A stretch of DNA of 64,000 nt from Antitrichia curtipendula (Eukaryota > Streptophyta > Bryopsida > Hypnales > Leucodontaceae). The notes beneath the pieces are model-generated. The model searched no databases and was not told the origin of the DNA. It was given only the letters and a program-made list of their open reading frames with translations. Shown piece by piece: positions 312 to 43,261 of the stretch. Numbering within the stretch: position 1 is the stretch's first letter; each line of letters starts with the position of its first letter. The translations under genes were made by a program, and so were the position numbers. The DNA lies in NCBI GenBank assembly GCA_951230915.1, contig OX579637.1:4216001-4280000 (forward strand), in the 5' to 3' direction.

Positions 312-345
312 GGACGGCCCGTCTGATCCTCACTTTTATTTTCCC
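300..345 (+). promoter_or_regulatory. Candidate core promoter of kinase-like gene, copy A
   Basis: The sequence GATAAAAAAG at 300-309 is followed by CGGACGGCCC and then by a leader containing TCCTCAC. The same arrangement occurs at 27724-27760 (TATAAAG) and 37693-37740 (CTTAAAGG) in front of two other genes of the element. This is a TATA-like box with a shared leader; function is inferred from position and repetition only. Confidence 0.5.
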
Positions 346-545
346 CCTTGTGTCATGCAAGAGAGAGCAGAGAGCTTGGTGGTTTATCCTCCATTGGCTC
401 CTTTCTAAGGGAAGATAAGAGTGTAATTTCTAGAGGATACTTGTTGCTTTTTTTTTCTACATTTCGTGTATGATCATTTGGCATATCGTATATTGCCTTG
501 TGGATTAGAAATTGCAAGTGCACTTCTAATCGTGATTTCATCACG

Positions 546-2030
546 ATGTTGAGACCAAAGAAGGCTGCGAAGGACAAACAAGTGAAGCCAAACATTGAGG
601 TGAGTATGGATGCTCCCTCTCTCGCTTGCAAAGCATTTCTCATTGAGTGCATTGTCAAATTTTATGAGTCGAAAACCACTGCATCGTTGCATACCAAATA
701 TGCAAGGTATGAAGAGAAGTGCATCGATAAATTCAAGGGAAATATGGCACAGAAATTAATGGATGCTTTAAATGTGCCTTAGTGGATTCATGAAATGGAG
801 AAGAAGGGCTTTCAACAATTTTTGAGGAGCAGGGTCCATGATGCATTGTGGAATGCAAAGGTGATGATAGAGAAGTACGGGAAGCAACACCGTGTAGGTG
901 ATGGCGCTTTTGAACAGGTCATTTTGAGGGCAGACTTGTTCGTTCGCCAATGCGCGCCTTTTGCAAGGACACAAAATAGGCGAGGTTCAATGAATTGGTG
1001 GAATAGTAATGAGGAACTTGTGGAGTTACAACGTGGGCGACGACATCTCTTAGCGCTTCTGGAAACAGCAAGGGTGATTCCACAAGATGATCAAATCCTT
1101 AGGGGTGGATACGCAACAATTCGGAGGGTTCGAATTGAAGGATGTCGTGAGATATCGACATTTTGGAAGTTTGTAGCGAAGGTATCTCATCAACAACGCT
1201 TACAACCTCAGCTCGCTAGGTTGGAACACCAAAACGAGTCAATGGCAGTGAGAATTCTACATGATGGAGTTATCCGGTTTTCTGCTATTCATGCAATGCA
1301 GAACGAAGGGTATTCGTATTGGTGGTATGGCGGAACATTGAGGCAAATGTTAAAATTGGATAAGGAATATCCCGATAACATTGGCATTCGGTTGGCTTAT
1401 TCTCAACCGACCCCGAAAGAGGTGACCAAAACTTTTTTTCTTGGTCGTTGGAGGAAGAAGCGCACAGAGCTTGCATGGGCACTGGTGCACCTCATGAATG
1501 CAGTGCACAGCGCTGGACATTTGTACAATGATCTTTCAGTGGACAACATTATGTTTCACTTTCCCGATGATGAGTCACGTGTTTACATTGGAGTTTGCGA
1601 TTGGGGCATGACTACTTTACGTAATGAACCAATGAAGTCCTTGTATACGTTCACCTCTCAGAGTGAGCGGACTGAGACCTTGAAAAAGAGGTGGTGGGTG
1701 GACCCTTCTATTGCATACTTGCATAGAAGAGATGCGGATGTGTCAACGATACCGATTTTATCACGTAAATCAGAGGAATATGCGGTTGGTTGAATAGTTC
1801 AAGCCATCAACAATGGTTGCATGTCGGCGGACTACGTGAGCTTAGATCGGGAAAATGAAGGACATACAAGATTTAGCCATGAGGATTTGGCAAAGATTTT
1901 TCACCTTTACTTGGAGCGCCTTTGTGATTTGGTGATTGATTCTCGAGGTAGCTTGTTTGAAATCATCCATCGATTTACCAATAATTACAACTGGCCTATT
2001 CCGGATGAACACTTCCGCCACTCATATTAG
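546..2030 (+). pseudogene. Protein-kinase-like cargo gene of giant hAT element, copy A (broken)
   Basis: The frame starts at ATG 546 and reads about 494 codons to TAG 2028-2030, interrupted by TAG at about 781 and TGA at 1791-1793. An N-terminal helical region of roughly 150 residues is followed by a kinase-like domain: a glycine-rich stretch GGYATIRRVRI, a candidate VAIK-type lysine in FVAKVS, a hinge-like region YWWYGGTLRQML, a catalytic-loop motif YNDLSVDNIMF and a DFG-like CDWGM. In the sister copy the loop reads HNDLSLDN, closer to the canonical HRDxxxxN, so the tyrosine here is probably a later change. Sister-copy comparison shows tyrosine where this copy has the first stop and arginine (CGA) where it has the second. 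Function in the element is unknown; a captured host kinase is the simplest reading (inference). Confidence 0.75.
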
Positions 2031-2637
2031 TGTCTATGATGTGAGTGGACTACATAGAACTATAAAAGTATTAGATAAATGTATAGGCGAGTACATAAAT
2101 TTGCATGATTGTGTGCAAACTATCTAGTATATATATGCACCATCAATGTATGTCAATATATGTGCACCCTTATAATTGATATAAAGTTTTGAAATGTTTG
2201 TGTGTTTTGAAACTTCCAATGTCCAATGTCTACCATCTATTTATGCATTCATCATATGTTTTGCTTGAAATCCTTAGATGAGAAGTGCAATGCAACAATT
2301 ATTATTGATGGATGTTAGCTTGGTATAATTGGGTACAAAATTATATAATCAATGTTGTACACATATAATGATAATAGAATTTCATCGTACGCAAATTTTT
2401 TTATATTGAAAAACAATACAATTGATACTTGAACGATACCGCTATGATGATACCAAGTACCAACCTCCAAATACATTTTAATAAAATATATTTATATCAA
2501 AGTATTTTAGTACGTAAATGCTATTTGCCATGATGCCGATATTTTTGTACTATGATTGCCACACTTCATAATCCAATGGCAAAAGATTCCAAGGCCCACT
2601 CGATTGTGAGACAACGACTAAAATAGCTCTACCTACT
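2031..2637. other. AT-rich spacer between convergent cargo genes, copy A
   Basis: The spacer separates the ends of the converging kinase-like and CKKYV genes. It contains no supported gene. It aligns by eye with 39425-39771 plus 40705-40978 in the complete copy, which has an additional 933-bp insertion here. No terminator or other signal is recognised. Confidence 0.6.
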
Positions 2638-3733
2638 TTACTCGGAATCTGAATGGATGTCATCTCTACGTTTGGTGGTGTGGAACCGGATCCATAAGTG
2701 CCAAGATATGGTCCTCTGCCTCAAGTGCATCCATAATCGCTTGGCACAGCTCCTTGATTGGGATTTCCATAGTAAGGACCTCCAAAAGTTGGAGGAGGAA
2801 CTACATCACGGTGCTGAGACTTTCCTTGCCTTGGTTCGACATGCCGAGAGCCTGTGTGGCGCTCATATGAACCACCCGTAGTAGATCCGGGATAGTATTG
2901 GGAGCCTCTTTGGCTAGATCCAAAATCATGTGTGGTTCCATGGCTTCTTTCTGGGTTGTAATGAGTACCTCGGAGGTCGTTAGCAAAGTGTAAGACCCTT
3001 TGACCATCTTGTGAACCAGATGCAGTACAATCATGTTGGTAGGACCTGTCATGCCCGTGTTGTTGACCCCGATCCTCCATGCTTCTACGCATAGCTTCTT
3101 GCATTTGTTGATTGAACTCAATGTCTTCCCGAGCTTCTTGACGCTCATGCCTCACTCCAAATGTCACGGGTGCTGGATTGTCTTCTACATCATCGTCGTC
3201 CGACCATTCATCCTCAGCATTCGGCAACACAACCGGCGGAAATCCAAACTGCCCTCGATTGGACCACATTCGCATACAATTGCTCGGTTGAGTCTAACTC
3301 GTATAAAAAACAACGTCAGTGCGCTTCATATTGTCAACATTTTTCCCGTAAATTGTGCGCCAGTCTACATCTTGGTGGAGTACAATCTCTATCCAAACCA
3401 TGGCCATGTTGGAATAATTCATGACATTTGGTTTGCAATCAGGCAGCTCAGCCCACCGCGTTATTTCCTCATATCGGTGAACAAAGTGTTGGCTCTTGCA
3501 CGTGGAAATTTGTCCTTCCTAGCGTCAAACTTGTTTGTCTGCTCATTCTTGTGACCGCATTTTAGAGAGGTGTGTCATTTTGACGTATTTTTTGCACATT
3601 GTGCAGTCCCAAACCTTCTTGGGCTCTTCTTCCCATCCAGATTCAGCTACACACATTGGATTTGTCCAATCTTTTCAGTTCATATCCTAGGATTTGCTTT
3701 TCTTACTGGACTTTGAGCTTTTATCACGAGCAT
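2638..3733 (-). pseudogene. CKKYV/HFVHR-domain protein gene, copy A (broken)
   Basis: This is the minus-strand counterpart of the gene at 40979-42076. The C-terminal half is still open from about 3275 down to a TGA at 2721-2723, encoding an acidic stretch DEWSDDDDVEDN followed by a Gln/Arg/Gly/Tyr/Pro-rich, probably disordered tail. The sister copy has TGG (Trp) at the position of that stop and reads on for about 25 more residues. The N-terminal half, with the CKKYV and HFVHR motifs, is frameshifted and interrupted here; the start is placed at the ATG aligned with the sister start (3731-3733). A one-base indel also changes the frame near the C-terminus. Function is unknown. Confidence 0.7.
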
Positions 3734-4007
3734 GATAACCTTGATTAAAATGAAATGATTTAATGACGAGGTTCACATGAATCTTTAGAACAACTGAACA
3801 AAATGTTTGACACTTGCCAATGAAACGGGGTGAAGTTGTTAACAAGGCCTTCAAAACCAAGTAATCACCAAAATAATTTGGTGCAATTCAATATTCAAGC
3901 ACAATTGTTCACGCACCAAAATGAAAGGGGCGCGTAGAGCCACTGAGAGGCACTGGATCACCCACTCCGCAAGGGAAACAATTGTGAGGAATAAGCCGTC
4001 TGCCGCG

Positions 4008-4017
4008 CTATTTATGG
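4008..4017 (-). promoter_or_regulatory. TATA-like box of CKKYV gene, copy A
   Basis: On the minus strand this reads CCATAAATAG. It lies at the inner edge of the CpG-rich array and is followed by a leader containing TTCCTCAC, as at the other element genes. The same box occurs at 42351-42360. Confidence 0.5.
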
Positions 4018-4437
4018 CGTCCGAAGGCGGACCAAGCAATGCAGATGCGTACGTGCGAATCGGACGCCCCGGAATCGGACGGGCAGATCTTGTGGACGGG
4101 ATCGCGCAGACGGTCGATCGGATCGTCGGACAGGCGCGCAAATGCCTCGACCGTAAGACCCTGTCCACACGATCCCGTCCCCACGATCCCGTCTGCGCGA
4201 TCCCGACGTCTTGTCTGCTTGACGGCCCATCCGCGAGCCCCCGACGCCCTGTCTGACCGCGTCGATGTCCCAACCGCGCCGACGATTCGATTGCACGGAC
4301 GACCCGACCGCACCAATGATCCGACCGCGCAGATGATCCAACCGTGCGGACGATCCAACTGCACGGATGGCCTGTCTAGGGATGTCAAGAGACGTCCGGG
4401 GGTCAGCGCCCACGTCCGCCGGACGTCTGGACGTCCT
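4018..4437. repeat. CpG-rich CGGACG array at right end, copy A
   Basis: Array of CGGACG/CGTCCG-type words in both orientations, between the terminal inverted repeat and the promoter of the minus-strand gene. Long open frames here are by-products of the base composition. Equivalent to 42361-42694. Subterminal repeats of this kind bind transposase in known hAT elements; binding here is inferred. Confidence 0.75.
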
Positions 4438-4447
4438 GTCAACCCTG
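4438..4447 (-). repeat. Terminal inverted repeat end of copy A
   Basis: GTCAACCCTG, the reverse complement of CAGGGTTGAC. It is identical to the right end of the complete element at 42695-42704 and to its left end at 27352-27361. CAGGG-type ends are characteristic of hAT elements. Confidence 0.8.
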
Positions 4448-25540: not shown

Positions 25541-25544
25541 ACGG

Positions 25545-26930: not shown

Positions 26931-27324
26931 ATGCATAGTACGCTAGATCAATATGGATTGCCACAATCCTTATTTTAGAGGGATTTTTTGAAAGTCTTGT
27001 AAATATAAAAATATAAAAATTGTAGAACATAAAAAAGACATATTTTAATGTTGAATTCTTGATGATCTATAAAATATAAACAAAATCTTTGTAAAATTGT
27101 TTATACACTATTTGTAAAAGATTTTGAAATGTAATCTTTACAGATTGTTATAGTCCATAGCATTGATGACAAAGATCATTGATTTATTAAAAAATCAAAC
27201 ATTTTGCAAAAAAAAGATTTATATTTAAATAGGTGTATATATAAAACTATATCTCTAACTTTGTAGATATGGACTACTTTATGTATCATTATCTTATCAT
27301 AATAGTATTGATTTTTGGGAATAC
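26931..27324. other. AT-rich interval before the LTR fragment
   Basis: Low-complexity AT-rich sequence without a supported feature. Confidence 0.5.
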
Positions 27325-27351
27325 TGATACGATGAATTTTGGCATCATCCT
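27325..27351 (+). mobile_element. First 27 bp of an LTR split by the giant hAT element
   Basis: Starts TGATACGATGAATTTTGGC and ends in ATCATCCT. It joins seamlessly to 42713-42966 when the giant element and one copy of its 8-bp target duplication are removed. The related LTR at 42967-43261, read on the minus strand, starts TGATACAATGAATTTTGGC and contains the same junction uninterrupted. Confidence 0.85.
27344..27351 (+). repeat. Left 8-bp target-site duplication of the giant hAT element
   Basis: ATCATCCT, identical to 42705-42712. Eight bases is the standard duplication length for hAT transposition. Confidence 0.92.
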
Positions 27352-27361
27352 CAGGGTTGAC
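27352..27361 (+). repeat. Left terminal inverted repeat of the giant hAT element
   Basis: CAGGGTTGAC. It matches the reverse complement of both right ends in the window (4438-4447 and 42695-42704). Confidence 0.9.
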
Positions 27362-27379
27362 GAATTGGAACGTCTAGGG

Positions 27380-27735
27380 GCAAATCACGTCCAAAATCCG
27401 AACATCCGGACGTAGCGTCCGCGGACTCTGTTGCGGACGTAGCAGACGTAGTGGCCACCGTCCGACGAATGCAGACCACCGGACGGGCGGACGGTGCGGA
27501 CAGGCGGACGGGCGGATGGTGGAAGGGGCGGACGGGGCGGACGGGTGGACGGGGGGCGGGGCGGTTGGACTCGGACGATCCGGCCGCCCGACCCAGCGGA
27601 CGGTTAGACCGTCCGTTCGATCGGACAGTAGGTTCGTCTGATCAATCGGACGACCGAGTCCGCTTCGGGAGGTTTGGGAGGGCGTCCGCCGCCGGACCTA
27701 CTTTAGGTTTGGTTGCGGACGGGTATAAAGGCGGA
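27380..27735. repeat. CpG-rich CGGACG array, left end
   Basis: Runs of GGCGGACGG, CGTCCGC and CCGTCCG words in both orientations between the left terminus and the first gene. The long open frames it contains are composition artefacts. Probably both a subterminal transposase-binding region and the promoter region of the first gene (inference). Confidence 0.8.
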
Positions 27736-27765
27736 CGGCCCTTCCATTCTTCCTCACTTCTTCTT
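27724..27765 (+). promoter_or_regulatory. Candidate core promoter of the CKKYV/coiled-coil gene
   Basis: TATAAAG at 27724-27730 sits at the inner edge of the array and is followed by GCGGACGGCCC and TTCCTCACTT. This is the best TATA match among the element genes; the same order of TATA-like box, CGGACGGCCC and TCCTCAC occurs at 300-345 and 37693-37740. Confidence 0.6.
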
Positions 27766-27879
27766 TCCATTTAGAGGTGGAACCCGTGTCGGAAGTTACA
27801 ACCGTTGCTTCATTGTGTTGGTTGCTCCTATACGGGTGGAGAGTGAGGTCAATTATTTTGATATCACTTGCCGTCAGTC

Positions 27880-30800
27880 ATGACAACGGAAGGTACGAGC
27901 AAGGGCACTGTAGCAATGACTTCAAGAGGTGGCAAGAGCGGGAAGACAAAATCAAAGGGGATTGCCCACGAGCTTCACTGGGACATTTTAGATGATCCAA
28001 ATATCAAAGCGGAGAGCGAATGGGAGAAGGAGGAAGAAACTTATTGGACCTCCAAAATCTGCAAAAAATATGTGAAAATGTATCACATCGACAAGTTGTG
28101 GCCTCGTGAGTTCCACATTATTCACACACAAGGTTTTTGTTGCAAGCCATCAAATTGCAAGGATGGACATTTTGTCCATCGATCACTTGAGGTTTGGCGG
28201 GCCCTCTTCGGGGACAAATCAATGAGTAAGGGTCATATAAACTACAGCATGGCCTCTATGGTGTATGCTAAGCTCATATTGGCTCGGAAGGTGGACTGGA
28301 GCACATATCCAACAACAACTGGGGCTCCGCTTTTGCTTACAGTAGGGCAAAAAGATATTCCGGATTTGTATGATCCAAAGGCAAGTCCAAGTGAGGCACC
28401 AAAATCACAGAAGCGACAAAAACATGCTTTAATGCAGATTAAAAAAGAGATCATGGAGGGGGGAAATATTGGAGTACACTTGGATTCTACGAAGATTCCA
28501 AGTTTCCAACTACAATGTCAAATGCCACGGTGGAAGGTGTTGACGGAGAGGTGTTTTTAACTCCTCGGGCGGATTGGATATGCACACGCAATTTTACATC
28601 CGTGGGTGAACAAAGTGATGCTTCAAGCATGCGGCCCATGAAAGAGGAACCGGTGGCCCCGTCTGCACCACAAATACGTCGGGAAGAGGTTCGTCCCGAA
28701 CAAATGGCAAGGGCCATTGCATCAATTGATAATATCATAGCGAGCGATGCTACAAATTTTATGACACAAGTACCTTGCAATCAAGACTTACCAACCACAC
28801 CGAGCCCCGTATTGAGTCCCGTATTGGGCACCGTATCAAGCCCCGTATTGGGCACCATATTGGGCCCCGTATCAAGCTCCATGTTGGGTCCCGTGTCGAG
28901 CCCAAGAGTTGAAGGGCAGATGTTGCCAAAAAATGGAAAGCAACTCGATGGCATGGCACAAAATGTGTCAATTGATGACAACCCATTGGATAAAAGTTAT
29001 CCGCATTTGTCAACTCAAAATTCGGCACAATTGGAGGATCATTGTCATTTGCCAATGGTGAGTGAATTGAAAAGCTTGTTGGAAGCTTCTTATTTGTTTA
29101 GGGCACATCAACAAGACATCTCTCTTCAACCAAAGCAAGTAATTGAGACAAATGAGGCCGGTCCTAGTAACCCCGCAAACAAGGCGGGCTTGACTGAAAC
29201 CGCAAACGAGGCCGGACCGAGTAGTCCCTTTGCCGAATACAGTGATCAATGGCCCAATTTTGTGATCACCTCAAAAAGATTGTCGGTTACAACTAAATTT
29301 GTAGCTAGCATTGCCCCCAAACTTATGGAAGTTGCTCAGGAATTCACCAAATCCGGGCCCGAGTTGGTGGAAGGTGCCTTGTCGTTTTGGGATTTCGTCA
29401 CGTCTATGAAACCATTATTGGGGGAGCGGGTCGAAAATAATCGCAAGCTGCTCATCTTGGCTGAAGAGAATGAAAAATACAAGGCCTTGAAGGTAGAGCA
29501 CGAGAAATTGAAAGAAGAGAACAAGCAATTGCTTGCTTCAATCAAAGGAGTGTGCGCTAATTATGAAAGATTTGCAAACGCACAGGATTGCCGATATGAT
29601 GCTCTAGTTTCTCAGAGGGAATTTATCGAGAAATTGGAATACGAAATTGTACAACTCAAGGAAAAGAATTTCAAGGATGGGGGATGGGTTCTTCCAAAGA
29701 CCGGCGGAGCCGTGCGTATAGAAGCGGTTGAGGAAAACAACCAAAAGGAAGTAATATCCGAAACCGCCATGGATAATTCCCCTCCCACATTTCGAGACGC
29801 GTCCATGCAAACGGAAGGCCACGAGTTTGAAGAGGTGAAGCATGAACTAGAGTCGGTAACTCAACAAAACGTCTATTTGGAGGCAGAGTATCAGAAAATG
29901 ATGCAAGTAGTGGAGCTAAATAAATGCTTGCCAAAGAGTAGTTCCGACACTCGTTGGTTGACGTGGGTTCAAAAACTACAAGACAAACCGTCTGTAGTAA
30001 CCCGAGCAATGAAGGGGCTTATCAAATTAGCCATGAAGTCAAAGGAGCAATGCGATGCCATTTCCTCTGACCTCCTATCTATTAGAAGGATGTTTGAGGT
30101 ACATCATAGGGGTTCAATTGACGTCACATATTGGAGGGACATGTCGGCAATGTTTGAGCAATTGGATGACGCGCAATAGAGAGGTGGACTTGCGGGCCAG
30201 GGGTATTGAAGACTTGGAGGCTCAAGAATTGTTTTGTCGTAGCATGGGGGGGCACTAGAGCATCTCACATCAAAAGTTCTTCTGATTTCGTGAAAAAGAA
30301 GTGCGGAAAGGAGAAGATGGCGTCTGGATAGAAGTGCAACCATCCCAAGAGTTCAACGAGCAGTACGGAGCATACAATCACAGCATAATAGGGAGGGCCC
30401 TATTCTTATCAAAATTGGAAGAAGCTGCGCAAGTTCGTGCTGCTTTTAATGTAGATGGGCTATCAAGTACAGAACATGCACTCGTGGAGGTGGCAAGTGC
30501 ATTTGATAAGAAGATCACTGACATTATAACGACGTGGAGGACTTTTCTACATGGCACAGGGCAAGCGATCTCGTTGGCTCCTCGAGATGATGACAAAGCG
30601 ATAAATGTTATGATAGACAAGATTTATTCGGCTTTGAGAGCGTTAAAGGCACATGAAGTAGATTTGTCTCCCACAAGGAAAAATAAACGAAAGATGGAAG
30701 ACCAAGATGACTACTCTCCAGAAACCAAACGACAATTCATCGCCGTGGACATGGAAGTCCAATCAAGAGGGGGCACAGCCTCCGGGTCGGATGGTCCTCA

Positions 30801-30882
30801 AACTCGTAGAGCAAGTCGAAGACTTAAGGAACAAGAAGGTGCCTTTCATATTTCCGCAAACGATAGCGATGATGCAAAATAG
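27880..30882 (+). pseudogene. CKKYV/HFVHR plus coiled-coil protein gene, frameshifted
   Basis: Three overlapping open pieces read as one product: 27880-28560, about 28500-30179 in another frame, and about 30165-30882 in a third. The start is ATG 27880. The N-terminus carries ICKKYVKM, then DGHFVHRSLEVW and INYSMASMVYAKLI, the same order as in the minus-strand gene at 40979-42076, so the two are paralogous. The middle has a short repeat of VLG/PVSSP type and a Pro/Glu/Asn-rich linker, then a coiled coil rich in Glu, Lys and Leu (about 29430-29660). The C-terminus contains KNKRKMED and RRASRRLKEQ basic clusters. One frame change lies near a run of G at about 30245. The total would be about 1000 residues. 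Function is unknown; the basic clusters suggest a nuclear protein, perhaps an accessory factor (inference). Introns instead of frameshifts are possible but no good splice sites were seen. Confidence 0.65.
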
Positions 30883-31219
30883 TGTTTGTATTAGGGGGTT
30901 AACCAATGAAATTTGTTTTGTACTTATTTGAATCTCATGAGGATTCAATATTAGTAATGCACAACACTCATGGTATATCATGAGTTGCTTTTAATTAATG
31001 TATAAATATTTATGCAATACAAATATGTTTGGATTTGTTTTTCCATAATGGTAAATTTTGTCTTATTTATTTGTCAAATATGTTTATTTTGTGTACCTAT
31101 TGCAGAAGATCATACCTATTGTACATTTGTACAAGATAATTTGATGTTATTGTTATGTTATCTTCTATAACCACGTGCCTACAAATCATCCATTTTCATT
31201 TGTACATACATTTCTATTC
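30883..31219. other. AT-rich spacer after the coiled-coil gene
   Basis: AT-rich, no supported gene. It is likely the 3' region of the preceding gene. Confidence 0.5.
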
Positions 31220-31605
31220 GCCTAATCCACTTGTCCGCCTGTGTGCACAATTCAAACATCTTGCCGAAATTGTAAAAAACGACTGTCCGCCTGACAGGTT
31301 TTAGGTCGGCCTATCGGCCCGTCCGCTGAACCGACGGCCCAGATTCCCGTCCGCAGACAGCCCATCCGGTGATCCAATGGCCCAGATTCCCGTCCGCCCG
31401 TCCGTTGAACCGACGGCCCAGATTCCCGTTCGCCAACCGCCCGTCCGCCCATCCGTTGATCCGACGGCTTAGATTCTCGTTCGTTGTTCGAACGGCCCAA
31501 ATTCCCGTCCGCCCGTTCGCCCGTCCGCTGATCCAATGGCTTAGATTTCCGTCCGCTGTTCGGACGGACCAGATTCCCGTCCGCCGTCCGCCTGACCGTT
31601 GTGGG
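31220..31605. repeat. CpG-rich CGGACG array upstream of the transposase
   Basis: Repeated blocks of the type CCGACGGCCCAGATTCCCGT alternate with GTCCGCCCGTCCG. The array ends 280 bases before the transposase start. No TATA-like box as clear as those of the other element genes is seen. Confidence 0.8.
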
Positions 31606-31886
31606 AGGATTTTTTTTTTTCCCATATTGAACAGTCACAAACAGATGAAGGCTATAAGAGTCCTGAAATTGACATTTGCAAACACTCCTAAAAAACTGAA
31701 CGTTAAGATTTCCAAGGGCTAGGAGCTGCAATTTTTTGTGTCCCTTGCTTGGTAATGCATAGTTCAGTGGAAAGGGGGGCCTTGTTTTTCAAGGCTTTGT
31801 GCATAAACATTTGAACGATTTAACCCAATTGTTATCATTACGTTTTGAATTTCTGATTCCAATATAGAGAGCCTAAAACAGCCACC

Positions 31887-34800
31887 ATGACCAAGGGTTG
31901 GCCTTCTTGGTACGAAACCCTATCAAATGGAAAAGTACAATGCAAGGCTTGCAAATTAGTATTTGCCAAGAAGCCGGTCCGTATATTTAGTCATTTGGGA
32001 TATGCAGGCACATCGGGGAGTCGTGACAAAGGAATTAGCCTTTGTACCCAAATGACATCTGAAGTTCGAGGTCTATTTGTTCGTTGCAATGGAGTGATTC
32101 CACAAAGAAATACTCCACACAATGTGGATGGCAACGACACACCTATGCCTATGGTTGTTCGTGCTATGTCAAATGCCAGAGACACTGTGAGCTCTACCGA
32201 AGAAGACTCATGCACGGCACCAGAGGAATATGTTGGTGGTTCTTCCCAAGGAAATCCAAGTACACAAGCATCAGGTGGACGTGGAACTCACTGGACATCA
32301 AGCAGTAGGCCTCAAAGACAAAGTAGGCTAGTAGAGGGATTCGACGAAGCAAATAAACGCATTTTGAATGCAATGTGGGCCAATTTCTTTTATGCGGCAA
32401 ACATACCATTTGCTGTAGCCCGAAATCCAGCCTTCAAAGAAGCAGTGAAGAAAACGGCGGAGTTTCACCAACCTTATAGCCCACCATCATACCATGATCT
32501 ACGTCATAAATTGCTTGACCAAGCAAACGTAGACTTAGAGGTTAATCTCCGTAAGCGGACAGAAACCAGTATTAGGAAGTTTGGAGCCACATTGTCTATT
32601 GATGGGTGGACATCGGTTTTGAATCGGCCATTGATAAATGCCATGCTTGTGTCATCCGCGGGTGAGCAATTCCTAGGATCGGTGGATACAACTGGGAAAA
32701 CTAAAGACGCTCCATATTTGGCCTCTATATTAGAGAGTTTTATAGAACAAGTGGGCCCTGCAAACGTAGTGCAAGTGAGTACAGATAATGCGGCTGTAAA
32801 TCCAGCAGCATGGAGTTTGGTATCTACTACCTATCTCCACATTTTTTTCCAAAGTTGGGTGGTGCATGCCTTGAATTTGTTGCTAAAAGATTGGGCAAAC
32901 GAATAATGGATTGATGACGTCGTGAAAGATTCCCGAAAGACGGTCAAATTCTTCAAGAAGAGGCACATGCCGCTTGCGATACTTCGGAAATATTCGACAC
33001 AGTACAACTTGTTGTTGGTGGTGGAAACAAGATTTGCCTTGAATTACAACATGGTTGCACGTATGCTCAAGGTGAAAGCACAATTGCAACAAACTGTGAC
33101 GGACCCGCAATGGGAGGAATATGCTAGAAAGCACTTGCGAAAATCCAAAACTCGTTTAGAATCCGAACGGGTGAAGAAGACCATTCTAAGTGGGCATTTT
33201 TGGCATCGTTGTCAAAATTTTGAAGATGTGACAGCTCCAATTGTCAATGCTCTTCGTGATTTGGATGCGAAGACACCATGCGTGGGCAAGGTGTTACATA
33301 TTATGAGGAAACTAGAGAAGCATGTCCTCGCTTTAGACAAAGAGCCTTTTTGTTTGGCTTTGGACAAAGCCATCCCGTTGGTGAAGGCGTTCTACGAACG
33401 ACGTGACATGGTGAAGACCGATTTACATTATGCAAGAGCACTTTTGAATCCCTACCTTCTTGATGACAAAGAACTAGCCGACAACACCGATGCCATGGCT
33501 GCATGCAAGCGCGTTTTGATGCAAATATGTACACCTTTAGAGTACGCGAAGGTGGTGAAGGAATTTGTAGCCTTTTGCCATAGGGAACCTCCGTTTCACA
33601 ACATGTTGGATCCGGGTGAACAACAATTGTCGACGCATGCTTGGTGGGATTTTGAGAGCACGTGCGGAAAGTTCATTGCTCCAATTGCCAAAAGGATTTT
33701 GGCCCAACTGGTATCATTGTCTTCATGTGAACGAAATTGGAGTAGCTATTCTTTTGTTCACAACAAATATCAAAACAAGTTGAAGCCACAAAGAGCACAT
33801 GATTTGGTATATGTGTATACCAATTCCAAAGTCCTCGATGCATCAAAGCAAAATGACGAGAAGAAGTGGTACGATGAGAACCTCGAGTCGAAGGATTCGG
33901 CTTTTTCTTCATCGAAAGACGAGGGTGGTGAATCCGGTGAAGAAGTTGATCCTCTCATGGACGATGAAGATGACCACGGCATCCGCAATTTTGATGATGA
34001 ACCGCTTTGAAGCCCACCTCATTATGATGCAGACATCGGATATGATTGTGAAGACCCTTACAAGTTTCCGTTGGATGAGGACGACTGTGAATATGACGAA
34101 GGTGGACCTTCCATAGCTAAATACTTAGATAGAACCGGGTTGTTGCATAGTGAAAACATTCTAGCAAATAGGGAAAATACTCATGCGAAGGTAGCGGAGG
34201 AAGATGAGGAAATAGTTATAGGTGATGACACTTCCCAAATGGATGAAGTGATTCGAATTCCCAAGTGTCCATCCATGACAACAGTAGGAGCGGAAGAAAA
34301 TGATCAACACGAAGACATGAGAGAGTGTGGGGTGAAGTCCCACACAAATGTGGTCAACCAAAGTATTGAATTACCTGGGGCATTGACAAGTGAAACTATT
34401 GGACTTTTTGGCATTCAAAATGCCCAAGCACCTCAAATAGAGGGAAGTCAAGATCCATGTGTATTGGAGTCCGTGTGCCCAATGCCACACCACAATGCCA
34501 AAGACATGAAGCACCTCGTGCGAGATCCTCAATTACCATGACGTAGCAATCCTCGACATGCACTATATACAAGCGGTAGCACAACTTTGAATGGTCCTGG
34601 AGACTCACGGTTTAAAGAACAACATTTGAGCAATTTGAAAGAATTGCACATTGGAGCCAATCCCAATCCATCCGTTTCATCAGACAACGATGATGTGCAA
34701 ACATTGGAGTCTATGTTGCGTCGATTTTCTGGCCATGCAAAGCATTCTCCGGTCAAATTTTCAAACCCTACAGTGAAAGCTTTGTCCATAGAGAAGACAA

Positions 34801-35204
34801 ACATTCCAGGAGGTTCGGAAGCACGTCCACCCACGGTGAAGGAGTCCAAAAAAGCTAAGAGGAAAAGAATAATGGAGCCTTTTGCAATCTCTACATTGAA
34901 AAAACAAAATGTAGGTAGAACCCCCCTTGATGCAAGTCTGCCTCTAACCAAGCGAAAGGTGAAACCAATCCACGATTTTAAGGGAGGTATTGGAAAGTCT
35001 CTACTAAAAGTCAAAAGGGATCATAAGTTAGGTAGACCAGTGAGATCAAGCGCATCGAAACAAGTACAAGAAGAAGGAGGGAAGATTGTACAATCTTCAT
35101 CAGATAGTATGCAAAATTCATCCAGTGACGATGATTCCGGATGGGATACAACAGGTCATAGTAGCGGGGCTGAAGTTAAAGGAGATAGTGACTACCAGCC
35201 ATAG
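31887..35204 (+). pseudogene. hAT-family transposase gene of the giant element, three in-frame stops
   Basis: One continuous frame of about 1105 codons is interrupted by TAA 32904, TGA 34008 and TGA 34539. The start ATG 31887 lies in a GCCACCATG context. Domains: an N-terminal BED-like zinc finger (VQCKACKLVF, residues about 15-65); DUF659 (about 160-335) with LSIDGWTS holding the first catalytic Asp, about 239, and STDNAA holding the second, about 300; then the hAT C-terminal dimerisation domain with SSCERNWSSYSFVHNKYQ (catalytic Glu about 615). After about residue 690 an unusual tail of some 400 residues follows, acidic first (DDEDDH, DEDDCEYDEGG), then basic (KKAKRKRIMEP), ending in a Ser/Asp cluster. 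All three stops are consistent with CAA or CGA changed by C-to-T. The enzyme would cut and join the CAGGG termini (family knowledge); this copy cannot make it. Confidence 0.85.
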
Positions 35205-35373
35205 TCCATAAAGATTGAGAAGATGTAAACTTGGGTGTTTAGTTTTTTACCCTAAACACATTATTTTATGACAATTCATTGTTCGAACTTTAAGTTTGTA
35301 ATACAAATTTGCTCATTCATGTTGTGCACACCATCAAAATTTTGTTTTTTCAAATACCTTAAAACTAGCGAAG

Positions 35374-35470
35374 ACCGTCTGTCCACTTGTCCGCCCGTCC
35401 GCCTCGTGGCCCGTCCGCGCCTTGGTCACCTCCGTCCGACGGGCGGACGGTCCGACTGCCTATTGGACCA
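35374..35470. repeat. Small CpG-rich CGTCCG cluster after the transposase gene
   Basis: A compact cluster of CCGTCCGC and GGGCGGACGGTCCG words about 170 bases downstream of the transposase frame. It is shorter than the other arrays and does not precede a visible gene directly. Confidence 0.7.
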
Positions 35471-35990
35471 TCGCAGTTCATGTTTTTTTCTCATTTAGTG
35501 CAGCATAGGATTCCTGAAATGGCCAGGTCATCTCCAAAGAGTGTGCCTTCATGACAACAAGCATCCAATGTGAATACTTCAAAGACATTGAACTCCTCAT
35601 GGGTCAAACATCAAACTTCATTCTTCAATGTGCACATCATATTTTTAGGTGCAATCTTGAAATTAAACATCTCAATGATATTTTGAAATGACCATCTTGA
35701 AAGATCAAAATGAAATGCTACCTATAGTTCTAAATATTTTTTTCTAAACTTTTGATGATAGATTGTAGATTTAATTATATTCAAAAATTTATTTGGATTT
35801 TAATCATATATTACTATATATTGTAAGACATCTCAATTTTAAAATAATTGCTTTTATGAAGAAATTTGTCGAAGTAAGCCAAATCCGACTTAATGTCATG
35901 AAACTAAAAACAATTGCTATGTACTTATATAATACTATTGCATCAAAGTCACGATCTTCTAAGATATTTGTATGCAAAGTTCTAATATAG

Positions 35991-36015
35991 GATTTAGGAT
36001 TTAGGGTTTAGGGTT
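35991..36015 (+). repeat. Short telomere-like motif run (TTTAGGG type)
   Basis: GATTTAGGATTTAGGG followed by TTTAGGGTT: about three imperfect copies of the plant telomere unit. Confidence 0.6.
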
Positions 36016-36886
36016 CATGTCATTCATATAAATGTTGTCCAAATTAGAAGTATATTTTGAAAATGGATGTGTGATAATATTTTGATGTAATATTAAAAAA
36101 TCATTTTGGTCATGATAGTATAGATTGGTACCTAATTAGTAATTACCTACTTATAAGAAATTGCCCCATTCAATGTCAAATAATTTTGTCAAAAATCATC
36201 TGGAGTTATATAACTTATATGTTGCGGACTTGCGGTCATGCGGAGTGCGGATCATGAAGTTAGAAAAAGCATATAGAGTTGTCTTATGTCTCTAGAATTC
36301 AAAATTCTTTATTCAAAATTGATATCAAAGAATATTAATTGTCTATTGGAATATTTTTTTCATTGGGATTAACAATTCTTCAATTCTTCCAAAAGTTATT
36401 AGCGTATTATTTTTCATTTAATAGTGCATCAATTTCTACTTCACAAATTTTAAAAAATGAATGTATAGTTCTTTTGAGTTTAACCTCTAATTCTCTAAAG
36501 TCCCATTGTCCCATCGGGGGACAAAATGGATGTGAGATTTTTAAATTCCATGCCCAATTGCACATTGGTGAATTCTTTGATGTATAAATTCATTCAACTA
36601 ATGTGGGACAATGGTGTTGATAAAATTACATAAAAAGTCTATTGTTGAATTTGTTTAACAAAATATATTCACATAAGAAATTAAAAAATTGACTTCAAAG
36701 CTTTATTTGCGAACTTGTGCGTGCTATAAATTCAAGAAACACCTAAACCCAATCAAGAATCCTCAAGTTAAGTTCTTAATTGAAGATGGTCCATATATTT
36801 CTTGAGGAACTTAATTTGCATTTGTTTTCATATTTTTAATTAGTTATGATTTCTTACATTTGTAACTTTAGAGTACAATTTACGAT

Positions 36887-36934
36887 TTAGGTTTTAGGGT
36901 ATAGGGTTTAGTGTATAGGGTTTAGGATGTAGGA
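36887..36934 (+). repeat. Second run of degenerate TTTAGGG-like units
   Basis: Units TTTAGGT, TTTAGGG, TATAGGG, TTTAGTG, TATAGGG and TTTAGGA in the same orientation as the run at 35991. Confidence 0.55.
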
Positions 36935-37089
36935 CTTAGTGTATAAAAATGAAGATCATTGCATTCAAAAACCGCTGGAGTTCTATTTAATGATTCAAGT
37001 TCTTTAAGTAAGAAAGTGAATGTCGATAAGATTTTTGTCTTTTCAATCCTTGTCATTATTTGCTGGTCGAGGTCGTTTTAGGAGTTAGA

Positions 37090-37712
37090 TGATGCAGCCG
37101 TCCGCCTGGTCGGATGACCTATAAAAATCTCTCAATTTGATCTCCACTTGATAGGGGCTGTCCGATCAGGTGGATTGCCCAGGTCAGACGGTCCAGGGCG
37201 GACGGCAGCCGCCCGATACATCAGGGCTGTCCGATGAGTCGGACGGGCGGCGTCCGCCTGATCGGATGGTCCTTACGATGCGGACGACTATCCGTCCGCC
37301 TCGTTGGGTCCGTCCGATCAGGCGGACGGGCGAGGCGTCCACCTTCGATTTTAGGGTCGGACGGCCCAGAGCGGACGGCGGCCGTCCGATTCACCGGGGC
37401 CGTCTGATGTGTCGGACGGGTGGCGTCCGCCTGATCGGACGGTTCTGACGAGGCGGACGACTGTCCGTCCGCGTCGTCTCGTTTGCCCGATCAGGCGGAA
37501 GGGCGAGGCGCCTGCCTTCGATTTTAGGGTCGAACGGCCCAGAGCGGACGGCGGCCGTCCGATTCAACGGGGCCGTCCGATGTGTCGGACGGGTGGCGTC
37601 CGCTTGTTTGGACAGTCCTGACGAGGCGGACGATGATTCGTCCGCCTCGTCGGGTCCGTCCGATCAGGCGGGCGGTCGAGGCGTCCGCCTTGCTTAAAGG
37701 AGTCGGACGGCC
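37090..37712. repeat. CpG-rich array upstream of kinase-like gene, copy B
   Basis: The array is organised in tandem units of about 173 bp: the word GATCAGGCGG recurs at about 37316, 37489 and 37661. Each unit holds CGGACGGCGGCCGTCCGATT and CGTCCGCCTGATCGGAC-type blocks. Same family as 1-311. Confidence 0.85.
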
Positions 37713-37740
37713 CGTCTGCTCCTCACTTTTATCTTCCTCC
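37693..37740 (+). promoter_or_regulatory. Candidate core promoter of kinase-like gene, copy B
   Basis: CTTAAAGG (degenerate TATA-like) followed by GTCGGACGGCCC and TCCTCACTTTTATCTTCC, aligned with the promoters at 300 and 27724. Confidence 0.45.
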
Positions 37741-37938
37741 TTGTGTCATGCAAGGGAGAGCGGAGAGCTTGGTGGTTTATCCTCCATTGGCTCCTTTCTA
37801 AGGGAAGATAAGAGTGTGATTTCTAGGGGATACTTGTTGCTTTTTTTTTCTACATTTCGTGTATGATCATTTGGCATATCGTATATTGCCTTTTGGATTA
37901 GAAATTGCAAGTGCACTTCTAAACGTGATTTCATCACG

Positions 37939-39424
37939 ATGCCGAGATCAAAGAAGGCTGCGAAGGACAAATGAGTGAAGCCGAACATTGAGGCGAGTAT
38001 GGATGCTCCCTCTCTCGCTTGCAAAGCATTTCTCATTGAGTGCATTGTCAATTTTTATGAGTCGAAAACCACTGCGTCGTTGTATACCAAATATGCGAGG
38101 TATGAAGACGAGTGCCCAGCTAAATTCAAGGGAGATATGGCACAGAAGTTCACGGATGCTTTAAACGTACCCTACTGGATTCATGAAATGGAGAGGAAAG
38201 GGCTTTCAACAATTTTTGAAGAACAAGGTCCATGATGCATTGTGGAATGCAAAGGTGACCTTAGAGAAGTACGCGAAGCAACACCGCGTAGGTGATGGCG
38301 CTTTTGAACAGGTCATTTTGAAGGCAGACTTGTTTGTTCGCCAGTGCGCCCCTTTTGCAAAGAATTGAAATAGGCGAGGTTCAATGGGTTGGTGGAATAG
38401 TGATGAGGGACTTGTAGAGTTGCAACGTGGGCGACGACATCTCTTAGCGCTTCCGGAAACAGCAAGGGTGATTCCACAAGATGATCAAATCCTGAAGGGT
38501 GGATACGCAACAATTCGGAGGGTCCGAATTGAAGGATGTCGTGAGATACCCACATTTTGGGAGTTCGCAGCGAAGGTATCTCATCAACAAGGCTTACGAC
38601 CTCAGCTTGCAAGGTTGGAACACCAAAACGAGTCAATGGCAGTGAGAATTTCACATGATGGAGTTATCCGGTTTTCTACTGTTCATGCAACGCAAAACGA
38701 AGGGTACTTGTATTGGTGGAATGGCGGAACATTGAAGCAAATGTTAAAATTGGATAAGGAATATCCCGATAACATTGGCATTCGGTTGGCTTATTCTCAA
38801 CCGACCCCGGAAGAGGTGACCAAAGCTTTTTTTCTTGGTCGTTGGAGGAAGAAGCGCACAGAGCTTGCATGGGCACTGGTGCACCTCATGAATGCAGTGC
38901 ACACCGCTGGACATTTGCACAATGATCTTTCACTGGACAACATTATGTTTCACTTTCCCAATGATGAGTCACGTGTTTACATTGGAGTTTGCGATTGGGG
39001 CATGACTACTTTACGTAATGAACCAATGAAGTCCTTGTACACGTTCACCTCTCAGAGTGAGCGGACTGAGACCTTGAAAAAGTGGTGGTGGGTGGACCCT
39101 TCTATTGCATACTTGCATAGAAGAGATGCGGATGTGACAATGATATCGAATTTATCACGTAAATCAGGGGAATATGTGGTTGGTCGAATAGCTCAAGCTA
39201 TCAACAATGGTTGCATGTCGGCGGACTATGTGAGCTTAGATCGGGAAAATGAAGGACATACAAGATTTAGCCATGAGGATTTGGCAAAGATTTTTCACCT
39301 TTACTTGGAGCGCCTTTGTGATTCGGTGATTGATTCTCGCGGTAGCTTGTCCGAAATCATCCATCGATTTACCAATAATTACAACTAGCCTATTCCGGAT
39401 GAACACTTCCGCCACTCATATTAG
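37939..39424 (+). pseudogene. Protein-kinase-like cargo gene of giant hAT element, copy B (broken)
   Basis: The frame is aligned with copy A from ATG 37939. It is broken by TGA at 37972, a one-base insertion near 38193, TGA at 38366, and TAG at 39386 where copy A has TGG. The rest of the frame is open at 38384-39388. Kinase features are clearer than in copy A: GGYATIRRVRIEG (glycine loop), FAAKVS (candidate ATP-binding Lys), YWWNGGTLKQML (hinge), HNDLSLDNIMF (catalytic loop with Asp and Asn kept, HND instead of HRD) and CDWGM (DFG-like). The stop positions differ from copy A, so a complete frame of about 494 codons existed in the ancestor. What the kinase acts on is unknown. Confidence 0.78.
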
Positions 39425-39771
39425 TGTCTATGGTGTTAGTGAACGACATAGAAGTGATAGAACTATAGAAGTATTAGGTAAATGTAGAGGCGAGTACATA
39501 AATTTGCATGATTGTGTGCAAACTATCTAGTATATATATGCACCATCAATGTATGTCAATATATGTGCACCCTTATAATTCATATAAAGTTTTGAAATGT
39601 TTGTGTGTTTTGAAACTTTCAATGTTCAATGTCTACCATCTATTTATGCATTCATCATATGCGGTCCTTGAAATCCTTGGATGAAAAGTGCAATGCAACA
39701 ATTATTGTTGATGGATGTTAGCTTGGTATGGTTGGGTTCAAAATTGTATAATCAATGTTGAACACATATTA

Positions 39772-40704
39772 CCCCTAAAAGACCAAAGTGTTTTTTTTGG
39801 CAACATAGCGATTTTGGGCAGCTCACTACAAATGGAATTTATATTTTTTTTCTTTGAAATTTTCATACAACACGTGCCCAAGGAGTAGCTTTAAGGCCCA
39901 ACAATTCTCATAAATTTTGACTACATGGTTAAAAAGTTATTGCATGATATGTCATTTTCAGTCCTTGGCGGGCAGCACGGGCAGGAAAAAAAACTTCTTC
40001 AAAAATCACTTTTTCAGAAAATAAAAATTTGAAATTGGTTCTTTAGATTTATATGTACGTGGGAAGCTTTGAATCATTCCATTTAGATATATGAGTCAAA
40101 AGTTATGAGGACTCTTAGTTTAAGGGTAGTTATGGAATTTCAACTCTAAAATAAACTTTGAAGTCTTTTATTTAACTGAATTTTCAATATTTTTGAAAAA
40201 AAATAAAAACATTGGGTGTAGATTGTTTATTACAACATTACAGCCGTTGGATTGGCATTTTTCAATTCCATAAATAAATTCTTCACAATTTAGTGTTTTG
40301 AATCATTCTCTACCTCTTCCTACTTACTATTTTTTTCCTATATGTTGTACAATTTCAAATGATCTGAAAATTTTCAAGCATGTAGCAAACTTGCCTTCAA
40401 GAATAAATCCAAAGAGTAACCACCATTTTGGACATTTTTTCTTACAAATGTGACCTTGTGAAGGGCAGCTGCCTGTTTTTTTGCAGGGACAAGAAAAGGA
40501 TTTTTGTCAATTCAAACACTATTATCTTGCAGTCCACATTGTGGAAATTCTGAAATTTTTTCCACATCTTCTTAAACAAGTTTACTACAAAGTCCTATGG
40601 TTATTTGTGTCCAAGAATGTTTTTTTTCTAAAATTTGACAGTAGTATTAGAAATGGCAGTTTTGGAACGTTTTTGGTGAAAACATAGTCAAAATCGATTA
40701 GGGG
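39772..40704. mobile_element. 933-bp insertion within the giant element, likely non-autonomous DNA transposon
   Basis: Copy A has no counterpart to this stretch: its flanks (ACACATA and AATGATAATAG) are joined directly at about 2362. The insert starts CCCCTAAAAG and ends TTAGGGG, giving a 7-bp inverted end CCCCTAA. Short TA-rich flanks (TTA left, ATA right) could be a degraded 3-bp duplication. It contains no supported gene. Confidence 0.65.
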
Positions 40705-40978
40705 ATAATGATAATAGAATTTCATCATACGCAAATATTTTTTATATTGAAAAGCAATACAATTGATACTTGAACGATACCGCTATGATGATACCAAGTA
40801 CCAACCTCCAAATACATTTTAATACAATATATTTACATCAAAGTATTTTAGTATGTAAATGCTATTTGCCGAGATGCCGATATTTTTGTACTATGATTGT
40901 CACACTCCATAATCCAATGGCAAAAGATTCCAAGGCCCACTCCATTGTGAAACAACAACTAAAATAGCTCTACCTACT

Positions 40979-42076
40979 TTACTCGGAATCTGAATGGATG
41001 TCATCTCTATGTTTTGGTGGTGTGGAACCGGATCCATAAGTGCCAAGATATGGTTCTCTGCCCCAAGTGCATCCATAGTCCCTTGGCGTAGCTCCTTGAT
41101 TGGGATTTCCATAGTAAGGACCTCCAAAAGTTGGAGGAGGAACTACATCACGATGCTGAGACCTTCCTTGCCTTGGTTCAATATGACGAGAGCTTGTGTG
41201 GCGCTCATATGAACCACCCGTAGTAGATCCAGAATAGTATTGGGAGCCTCCTTGGCTAGATCCAAAATCATGTGTGGTTCCATGGCTTCTTTCTGGGTTG
41301 TAATAAGTACCTCGGAGGTCGTTAGCGTAGTGTAAGACCCTTTAACCATCTTGTGAACCAGATGCAGTACGATCATGTTGGTAGGACCTGTCATGCCCGT
41401 GTCGTTGACCTCGATCCTCCATGCTTCTACGCATAGCTTCTTGCATTTGTTGATTGAACTGGATGTCTTCCCGAGCTTCTTGACGCTCATGTCCCACTGT
41501 AAATGTTACGGGTGCTAGATTGTCTTCTACATCATCGTCGTCCGACCATTCATCCTCAGCATCCGGCAATACAACCGGCGGAAATCCAAACTGCCCTCGA
41601 TTGGACCACATTTGCATACAATCGCTTGGTTGAGTCCAACTCGTATAAATAACATCGTCAGTGCGCTTCATATTATCAACATTTTTCCCGTAAATTGTGC
41701 GCCAATCTACATCTTTGTGGAGTACAATCTCTGCCCAAACCATGGCCATGTTAGAATAATTCATAACATTTGGTTTGGAGTAAGGTAGCTCAGCGCACCG
41801 CGTTACTTCCTCGTATCGGTGTACAAAGTGATGGCTCTCACATGTGGAAATTTGTCCTTCCCAGCGTCGAACTTGCTTGTCTGCTCGTTCTTGTGACCAC
41901 ATTTTGGAGAGGTGCGTCATTCTGACATACTTTTTGCACATTGTGCAGTCCCAAACCTTCTTGGGCTCTTCTTCCCATCTAGGTTCAGCTACACACATTG
42001 CATTTGCCCAATCTCCCCAGTTCATGTCCTGGGATTTGCCTTTGTTACTAGACCTTGAACTACTATTGCGAGGCAT
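40979..42076 (-). pseudogene. CKKYV/HFVHR-domain protein gene, copy B (one internal stop)
   Basis: The minus-strand frame runs from ATG 42074-42076 to TAA 40979-40981 (365 codons plus stop) with a single internal TAA at 41342-41344, where copy A has CAA (Gln). The N-terminus is Ser/Arg/Lys-rich; then WDCTMCKKYVRM, SHHFVHRYEEV and MNYSNMAMVWAEIVLHKDVDW follow, the same order as in the gene at 27880. The CxxC, a later Cys and His residues could bind a metal (inference). The C-terminal half has DEWSDDDDVEDN and a low-complexity Gln/Arg/His/Tyr/Gly tail. It converges on the kinase-like gene. Function is unknown; presence of two paralogues in one element suggests a role in its life cycle. Confidence 0.75.
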
Positions 42077-42350
42077 GATAACCTTGATTAAAATGAAATG
42101 ATTTGATGACAAAGTTCACATGAATCTTTAGGAGAACTGAACAAAATGTTTGACACTTGCCAATGAAACGAGGTGAAGTTGTTAACAAGGCCTTCAAAAC
42201 CAAGTAATCACCAAAAAAATTTGGTGCAATTTAGTATCCGAGCACAATTGTTCACGCACCAAAATGAAAGGGGTGCGCAGAGCCACTGAGAGGCACTGGA
42301 TCACCCACTCCGCAAGGGAAACAATTGTGAGGAATGAGCCGTCCGCAGCG

Positions 42351-42360
42351 CTATTTATGG
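42351..42360 (-). promoter_or_regulatory. TATA-like box of CKKYV gene, copy B
   Basis: CCATAAATAG on the minus strand at the inner edge of the array, followed by a leader with TTCCTCAC; identical to the box at 4008-4017. Confidence 0.5.
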
Positions 42361-42694
42361 CGTTCGAAGGCGGACCAGGCAATGCGGACGCGTACGTGCG
42401 AATCGGACGGCCCAGAATTGGACGGGCAGATCGTGCGGACGGGATCGCGCGGACGGTCCGGTCCGCACGTGCCCGTCCGCACGATTGCGTCCCCGAGTCT
42501 GACGCCCTATCCGCTCGAGGGCCCGTCCGCGCGGACAATCCGACCGCGCGGAAGGGCCCTCGGGCGGACAGGGCATCGGGCTCGCGTACGGGCCGTCTGA
42601 CCGTCCACTGGACGATTGGATGGCCCGTCCAGGGATGTAAGAAGACGTCCGGGGGTCAGCACCCACGTCCGCCGGATGTCCGGGCGGACGTCCT
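42361..42694. repeat. CpG-rich CGGACG array, right end of the giant element
   Basis: Counterpart of 4018-4437 with words such as GCGGACGGTCCG and CGTCCGCCGGA. It lies between the right terminus and the minus-strand promoter. Confidence 0.8.
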
Positions 42695-42704
42695 GTCAAC
42701 CCTG
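42695..42704 (-). repeat. Right terminal inverted repeat of the giant hAT element
   Basis: GTCAACCCTG, perfect inverted match to 27352-27361. Confidence 0.9.
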
Positions 42705-42712
42705 ATCATCCT
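42705..42712 (+). repeat. Right 8-bp target-site duplication
   Basis: ATCATCCT, identical to 27344-27351. Confidence 0.92.
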
Positions 42713-42966: not shown

Positions 42967-43261
42967 GGCAATGAAACCAGATGAAAACACACAATTTAGT
43001 ACACATCCCATAATATAATTTTATTTCCTTTTATTTATATCGAAAGCTATCACAAGTATCTCCTTGAGTACTCTCCTATATATTTTTCCTATGTCTTCTT
43101 CTATTACCCTCCTAGCTAACACCCTCCTTGTGAAGAAGGCAAACTGCATGATGTGCCAAGAATGGCAACCACCTAGTAGTTCTCCCTAGTTGATTTAGAG
43201 AGTGCACGTAAATATGAGAAAGAATGAAAGGTTGAGGATGATGCCAAAATTCATTGTATCA
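42967..43261 (-). mobile_element. 3' LTR of the gypsy element (minus strand)
   Basis: Read on the minus strand it starts TGATACAATGAATTTTGGC immediately after a purine-rich tract GGAGAGAAGA, the expected polypurine tract of an LTR retrotransposon. The pol frame ends within its first bases. Its left end abuts the oppositely oriented LTR, making a palindrome of about 250-bp arms. Confidence 0.75.

What the first reader, a model, noticed from the sequence alone, without database searches (positions are those of the whole stretch)
27344..42712. A 15.35-kb hAT transposon with intact ends, target duplication and an internal empty-site control
CAGGGTTGAC ends and the 8-bp duplication ATCATCCT bracket the entire 27352-42704 interval. 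The related inverted LTR at 42967-43261 carries the same target sequence without the insertion, so the whole segment moved as one unit. Known hAT elements are usually a few kilobases with a single transposase gene; one with four genes and several promoter arrays is unusual and may be an undescribed lineage.
Basis: partly seen in the sequence, partly recalled or inferred. Interest (0 to 1): 0.93.

Follow-up and report, generated by a model that had tools for sequence, protein, structure and literature searches.

The report
Large four-gene hAT transposon family
A 15- to 18-kilobase jumping gene in a plant genome, most likely a moss, carries not one gene but four, including a protein-kinase-like gene and a RING-finger gene, and moves as one block, which is unusual for its class of transposon.

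Summary
CAGGGTTGAC ends and the 8-bp duplication ATCATCCT bracket 27352-42704, and an inverted LTR copy beside it holds the unoccupied target. I fetched 12 other copies from the source genome. The window element aligns over 15,353 of 15,353 bases to one on another contig, c10, which has its own 8/8 duplication. Seven of 12 keep the order A(+) B(+) C(+) D(-); the six of these with both ends placed are 16.1-18.2 kb. B is a hAT transposase, C a protein-kinase-like protein, A a coiled-coil/RING protein; A and D share an N-terminal domain. CGGACG-rich arrays recur at five matching places. Beside one copy lies a distant relative (transposase 37% identical) with its own kinase-like gene, A-type RING gene and similar arrays. 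So this is a lineage of multi-gene hAT elements. The window copy is decayed: RING part lost, transposase with three stops. None of the 11 copies counted has all four genes intact. What the extra genes do is inferred, not shown.

The parts
27344..27351 (.). left target site duplication ATCATCCT
27352..27361 (+). left terminal inverted repeat CAGGGTTGAC
   Evidence: the left 301 bases have 40 scored places in the genome, this one included, out of 464 candidates
27400..27720 (.). CGGACG-rich array 1 (15 CGGAC, 5 GTCCG, about 0.7 each expected)
   Evidence: same place in the copies
27880..30882 (+). gene A: N-terminal domain shared with D, coiled coil; a RING part present in the 12 copies is deleted here at about 30163-30175; frameshift near 28500, further stops after the deletion
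31300..31610 (.). CGGACG-rich array 2, upstream of B
31887..35204 (+). gene B: hAT transposase (DUF659 + Dimer_Tnp_hAT), one frame with stops at 32904, 34008 and 34539 before the last stop at 35202
35370..35475 (.). CGGACG-rich array 3, downstream of B
36537..36543 (.). deletion junction: about 580-590 bases present in c1, c3 and c10 are missing here
37095..37715 (.). CGGACG-rich array 4 upstream of C, with a 173-base tandem repeat of 3.1 units
37939..39424 (+). gene C: protein-kinase-like protein, 494 aa in copy c10; three stops and a frameshift here
39770..40704 (.). 935-base stretch absent from the window's second copy (1-4447) but inside the continuous alignments to c1, c3 and c10; MITE-like ends CCCCTAA/TTAGGGG
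40979..42076 (-). gene D: 365 aa in copies c2, c4 and c8; N-terminal domain shared with A, low-complexity C-terminus; one stop here
42345..42690 (.). CGGACG-rich array 5 at the right end
42695..42704 (-). right terminal inverted repeat (GTCAACCCTG on +)
42705..42712 (.). right target site duplication ATCATCCT
42967..43261 (-). inverted LTR copy with the unoccupied target site
1..4447 (+). right part of a second member of the family: array, C, D, array, TIR; left part outside the window

Best explanation
27352-42704 is one copy of a multi-copy hAT-superfamily DNA transposon about 16 kb long with four genes. Shown: recurrent ends, 8-bp duplications, a recurrent gene set and order, recurrent arrays, and the same interior at independent sites. 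Inferred: B binds CGGACG-type sites in the arrays through its N-terminal zinc finger, and cuts and re-inserts the whole block by hAT cut-and-paste. The repeat of these arrays upstream of A, B and C and at the right end, where they lie upstream of D, would let one DNA-binding protein (B, or the domain shared by A and D) control all four genes and mark the ends. Speculative: kinase C and RING protein A act on host proteins or on B, most plausibly to keep the element expressed against silencing. The window copy is a dead, internally deleted derivative.
For: Ends, TSD and empty site. Window element colinear with c10 (15,353 of 15,353 bases), c3 (15,342) and c1 (15,141). TSD scores for the 7 of 12 copies with both ends placed: c2, c3, c8, c10 8/8; c1 7/8; c4 6/8; c5 5/8. 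Of 12 copies: A and RING in 12, B in 11, C in 9 (one partial), D in 8; full order A-B-C-D in 7. Arrays at five matching places in c3, c4, c5, c8, c10 and the window copy. B: DUF659 and Dimer_Tnp_hAT above Pfam cut-offs; D237, D298 invariant and E613 nearly so in the 18 rows of A2. C: kinase-type model of relative P0002, pLDDT 83.7, pTM 0.65; K212, D329, N334, D352 invariant over 31 rows, H327 nearly. Distant relative with B, C and A types and GGACGG arrays between CAGGGTTGTC ends 16.1 kb apart. hAT zinc-finger proteins often prefer CGG, with motif matches in subterminal regions of the four hATs tested (PMC8097297, passages).
Against: None of the 11 copies counted (window, c1-c10) has all four genes intact (c11 and c12 were not counted), so autonomy is not shown. 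In c6, c7, c11 and c12 C and/or D are missing or outside the stretch fetched. The left end that brought in c9 belongs to another, opposite-facing remnant; the c9 element has a degenerate right end and no duplication. Mean dN/dS among decayed copies is 0.47-0.68; single-copy variants give about the same values as shared ones (pooled p 0.48), so part of this may be mutation bias. Shared variants show clear constraint for B and D, weaker for A, none significant for C or the B tail. CpG decay in the four arrays tested (0.060-0.093) is not clearly lower than in genes (0.058-0.085), so protection from methylation is not supported. The relative beside c2 has no matching TSD. Gene A has one public relative only (candidates capped).
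Confidence: 0.93

Rival explanations
1. The outer ends belong to a short hAT element and the interior is unrelated sequence that inserted later.
For: A 935-base stretch at 39770-40704 is absent from the second window copy and looks like a MITE; some copies are interrupted by extra sequence, such as c7, c8, c11 and c12.
Against: The interior, that stretch included, is colinear in c1, c3 and c10, and scans found no convincing inner ends.
Confidence: 0.02
2. A, C and D are passenger genes captured once from the host and carried along; only B and the ends matter for movement.
For: hAT elements are expected to need only a transposase (recalled). C is kinase-like, and variants of C shared between copies show no significant constraint.
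Against: C has 90 public relatives, 66 of them 41-72% identical over the aligned part, with catalytic positions kept in the 31 rows aligned. The same gene types recur in a lineage whose transposase is only 37% identical. D keeps an intact frame in 3 of 10 copies.
Confidence: 0.3
3. It is a composite of two neighbouring hAT elements mobilised by their outer ends.
For: Arrays like those at the ends also lie inside, and A and D share a domain at opposite ends.
Against: No convincing inner TIR/TSD; the same full-length structure in independent copies and a similar plan in the distant relative.
Confidence: 0.05
4. The copies are segmental duplications, not transposition products.
For: Copies match the window element at about 89-96% over long stretches.
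Against: Homology of the two window copies stops at the TIR and the flanks differ; most copies with both ends placed have their own 8-bp duplication.
Confidence: 0.01

Closest known systems
hAT superfamily (Ac, Tam3, hobo, Hermes, Tol2; recalled)
   Same: 8-bp duplications, short CA.GG-type TIRs, DUF659/Dimer_Tnp_hAT transposase, subterminal repeats
   Different: known autonomous hATs are a few kb with one transposase gene (recalled); this family is about 16 kb with four genes and internal arrays
VANDAL elements with VANC anti-silencing proteins (Mutator-like, Arabidopsis; PMC10398659, passages read)
   Same: accessory protein genes in a DNA transposon; tandem short-motif repeats in noncoding parts that differ between families
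   Different: other superfamily (recalled); no sequence relation tested; binding of an accessory protein to the arrays is not shown here
ToxhAT/ToxTA (14-kb fungal transposon; PMC12506042, passages read)
   Same: about the same size, several genes
   Different: reclassified there by a 2-bp TA duplication and 74-bp TIRs as Tc1/Mariner-like and non-autonomous
Giant eukaryotic transposons (review PMC6431247, passages read)
   Same: many genes in one DNA transposon (Polinton/Maverick, Teratorn, Helitron)
   Different: the word hAT does not occur in that review's main text; none of the four genes here matched a replication or capsid family in the Pfam scans

Membership tests
hAT superfamily | 8-bp target site duplication | tested here: met
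   window copy and four of the seven other copies with both ends placed 8/8, the other three 7/8, 6/8, 5/8
hAT superfamily | short TIR of CA.GG type | tested here: met
   CAGGGTTGAC, with CAAGGTTGAC variants
hAT superfamily | transposase with hAT C-terminal dimerisation domain | tested here: met
   Dimer_Tnp_hAT 32.2 bits against cut-off 21.4; DUF659 100.2 against 34.7
hAT superfamily | DDE catalytic residues | tested here: inconclusive
   D237 and D298 invariant, E613 nearly invariant in A2; their role is recalled; the profile matched Hermes only weakly (E 0.13-0.15), mainly in the C-terminal part
hAT superfamily | N-terminal BED-type zinc finger | tested here: inconclusive
   C-x2-C...H pattern by eye; no Pfam BED match
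Protein kinase superfamily (gene C) | kinase fold and catalytic K, HxD, N, DxG | tested here: met
   model and Foldseek matches, TM 0.55-0.64 by target but 0.32-0.39 by query in the 50 rows shown; K212, D329, N334, D352, G354 invariant, H327 nearly; Pfam Pkinase E 7.6e-05 but 22.7 bits, below cut-off 31.7
RING-finger proteins (gene A) | RING domain | tested here: met
   P0091 above cut-off for zf-RING_2; homologous part in 12 of 12 copies, deleted in the window copy
VANC-type anti-silencing | accessory protein binds the arrays and removes methylation | not testable with these tools
   CpG decay in the arrays gave no support

The most novel reading that the evidence does not exclude
An old clade of large hAT transposons carries a conserved toolkit of kinase, RING protein and array-binding proteins that acts on host silencing or signalling, with the arrays serving at once as transposase sites, coordinated promoters and anti-silencing targets.
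Probability: 0.3. Interest if true: 0.93.

Novelty: new variant of a known kind. Interest (0 to 1): 0.82.

Why it matters
hAT elements are taken as simple, one-gene cut-and-paste transposons (recalled). A recurrent 16-kb version with a kinase-like gene, a RING gene and shared arrays would show that this superfamily also evolved multi-gene elements, and would give a natural system to test why a DNA transposon carries signalling genes. It also suggests that some kinase gene families annotated in moss genomes may be transposon genes (inference from the 126-member Ceratodon cluster).

Tried and rejected
Short element with unrelated filler: rejected by colinear copies. Inner nested hAT ends: none convincing. 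The 935-base stretch 39770-40704, first noted as a nested insertion in this copy (note), proved to be shared with c1, c3 and c10. Protection of arrays from methylation decay: not supported in the four of five arrays tested. Single versus shared variants as a test of selection: mixed, pooled Fisher p 0.48. Structure of the A/D domain: useless model, pLDDT 30.8 from two sequences. Scans of viral and prokaryotic contigs with kinase and transposase alignments: no relatives. Link between kinase and transposase relatives through shared public contigs: no longest-contig length coincided between the listings (compared by eye; not proof either way).

Full report
Setting. The window is G000:C5:4216001-4280000 of a 400-Mb genome in 303 contigs. 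Kinase relatives include named proteins of the moss Ceratodon purpureus at 50% and 41% identity (P0027, P0047), so a moss is likely but not established.

Observation. Ends and duplication are as stated. In window 1-50300 this is the only pair combining a 10/10 TIR and an exact 8-bp repeat. One such pair appeared in 30 shuffles, so TIR plus TSD alone is good but not overwhelming. The neighbouring inverted LTR copy is continuous across the target with a single ATCATCCT. Window 1-4447 is a second family member cut by the window edge. It matches 37513-39769 and 40705-42458 at about 93%, lacking the 935 bases between, and both copies end at the TIR.

Decisive test. The left 301 bases match many places: 464 candidates, of which 40 were scored, the window's own among them. 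I fetched the surroundings of 12 of the 39 others, the ten best and two lower in the list (with an extra stretch for c1). The window element is covered 15,353 of 15,353 by c10, 15,342 by c3 and 15,141 by c1. c10 lies on contig C2, c3 on C8, c1 on C5. Copies with both ends placed are c1 16,169 bases, c2 11,687 (without B), c3 16,215, c4 16,148, c5 16,351, c8 18,216 (B split by about 2 kb) and c10 16,438. Their duplications score 7, 8, 8, 6, 5, 8 and 8 of 8. In c9 the listed left end belongs to a remnant. The element there faces the other way and keeps all genes in order, but has a degenerate right end and no duplication. In c6, c7, c11 and c12 the right part is missing, interrupted or beyond the stretch. 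Counts over 12: A 12, RING part 12, B 11, C 9 (one partial), D 8, full order 7.

Genes. B carries DUF659 and Dimer_Tnp_hAT. It has 29 public relatives, the best four of 908-1,123 aa (candidates capped), and here three in-frame stops. C is a kinase-like protein of 494 aa in c10 with 90 public relatives. An AlphaFold model of its relative P0002 has a kinase-type domain behind a helical N-terminal part. The 50 Foldseek rows shown are kinases at 11-16% identity; TM-scores are moderate by target (0.55-0.64) and low by query (0.32-0.39). K212, D329, N334 and DWG 352-354 are invariant over the 31 rows aligned, two of them from the window; H327 is nearly so. A has an N-terminal domain, a coiled-coil part matching P0091 at 36%, its only public relative found, and in the other copies a RING part. 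The window copy lost about 490 bases with the RING part, at a junction with a short overlap (8-13 bases, 30163-30175). D has the same N-terminal domain as A (35% over 114 aa) and faces inward from the right end. Of the copies counted, D is uninterrupted in c2, c4 and c8, C in c10, and the first 870 codons of A in c3; none of the 11 has everything (c11 and c12 not counted).

Arrays. CGGAC/GTCCG clusters lie at the left end before A, before B, after B, before C and at the right end. The same five places are seen in c3, c4, c5, c8 and c10 (c4 with one extra small cluster), and four of five in c1, whose right end was outside the stretch counted. c2, which lacks B, has three; c6 and c7 have three and two; c9 has six. 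hAT-derived zinc-finger proteins often prefer CGG or CGC, and the four hAT-encoded ones tested have motif matches in subterminal regions (PMC8097297, passages). This makes the arrays good candidates for B-binding sites. Arrays near genes recall VANC targets of VANDAL elements (PMC10398659, passages). However, CpG decay in the four arrays tested is not clearly lower than in the genes, so I found no trace of protection.

A wider lineage. Beside c2 lies another element: a transposase 37% identical to B and about 65% to P0113 over its first 553 residues, a kinase-like gene on the minus strand, and a gene with A-type N-terminal domain (29%) and RING part (31%). GGACGG-type arrays lie upstream of each gene. 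CAGGGTTGTC ends lie 16.1 kb apart, though without a matching duplication. A 246-base element with the same CAGGGTTGTC ends and an 8/8 duplication ACTTGAGT sits near c3. c3 itself is flanked by parts of another A-type gene, with a kinase-like gene nearby.

Selection. Mean pairwise dN/dS among decayed copies: A 0.57, B 0.47, B tail 0.68, C 0.54, D 0.51. Variants shared by two or more copies give 0.59, 0.32, 0.56, 0.70 and 0.33; variants in one copy give 0.50, 0.58, 0.70, 0.47 and 0.60; pooled they do not differ. These values mix active life with decay and are not corrected for transition bias. Conservation among distant relatives is the stronger argument for function.

Literature. Nine searches were aimed at such elements and a tenth at VANC. 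The listings, mostly the top 12-15 of those found, showed no multi-gene hAT element of this kind. Passages were read in four papers: PMC12506042, PMC6431247, PMC8097297 and PMC10398659. Repbase could not be searched.

Verdict. The element is real, moved as a block and is one of a family. By TIR, duplication and transposase it belongs to hAT. Its size, gene set and arrays make it a new variant. The function of A, C and D is open.

Noticed in passing
window 50372-64000: 195-base satellite in long arrays (45 and 19 units among others), reaching the window edge.
   Followed up: no
window 25524-26933: AT-rich minisatellite with mostly 59-base spacing just left of the element.
   Followed up: no
window 42705-43261: Two LTR copies in inverted orientation only about 20 bases apart, beside reverse transcriptase and integrase-type frames at 44064-46178 on the minus strand.
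   Followed up: partly
window 46180-46415: Nearly perfect palindrome of 236 bases (99% identical to its own reverse complement).
   Followed up: no
L011+L012+L029+L031, about 14168-30267: Second, distant lineage of large multi-gene hAT element: ends CAGGGTTGTC, transposase, minus-strand kinase-like gene, A-type RING gene, GGACGG arrays; no matching duplication.
   Followed up: partly
L013+L014+L030, about 23148-23394: 246-base element with CAGGGTTGTC ends and 8/8 duplication ACTTGAGT, beside a kinase-like gene: a likely MITE of the second lineage.
   Followed up: partly
L013 and L014, flanks of c3: Copy c3 is flanked by the N-terminal part and the RING part of another A-type gene, so it may have inserted into a relative.
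   Followed up: partly
public protein P0047 (Ceratodon purpureus KC19_VG055000): Cluster of 126 member sequences related to C; may be transposon genes annotated as host kinases.
   Followed up: no
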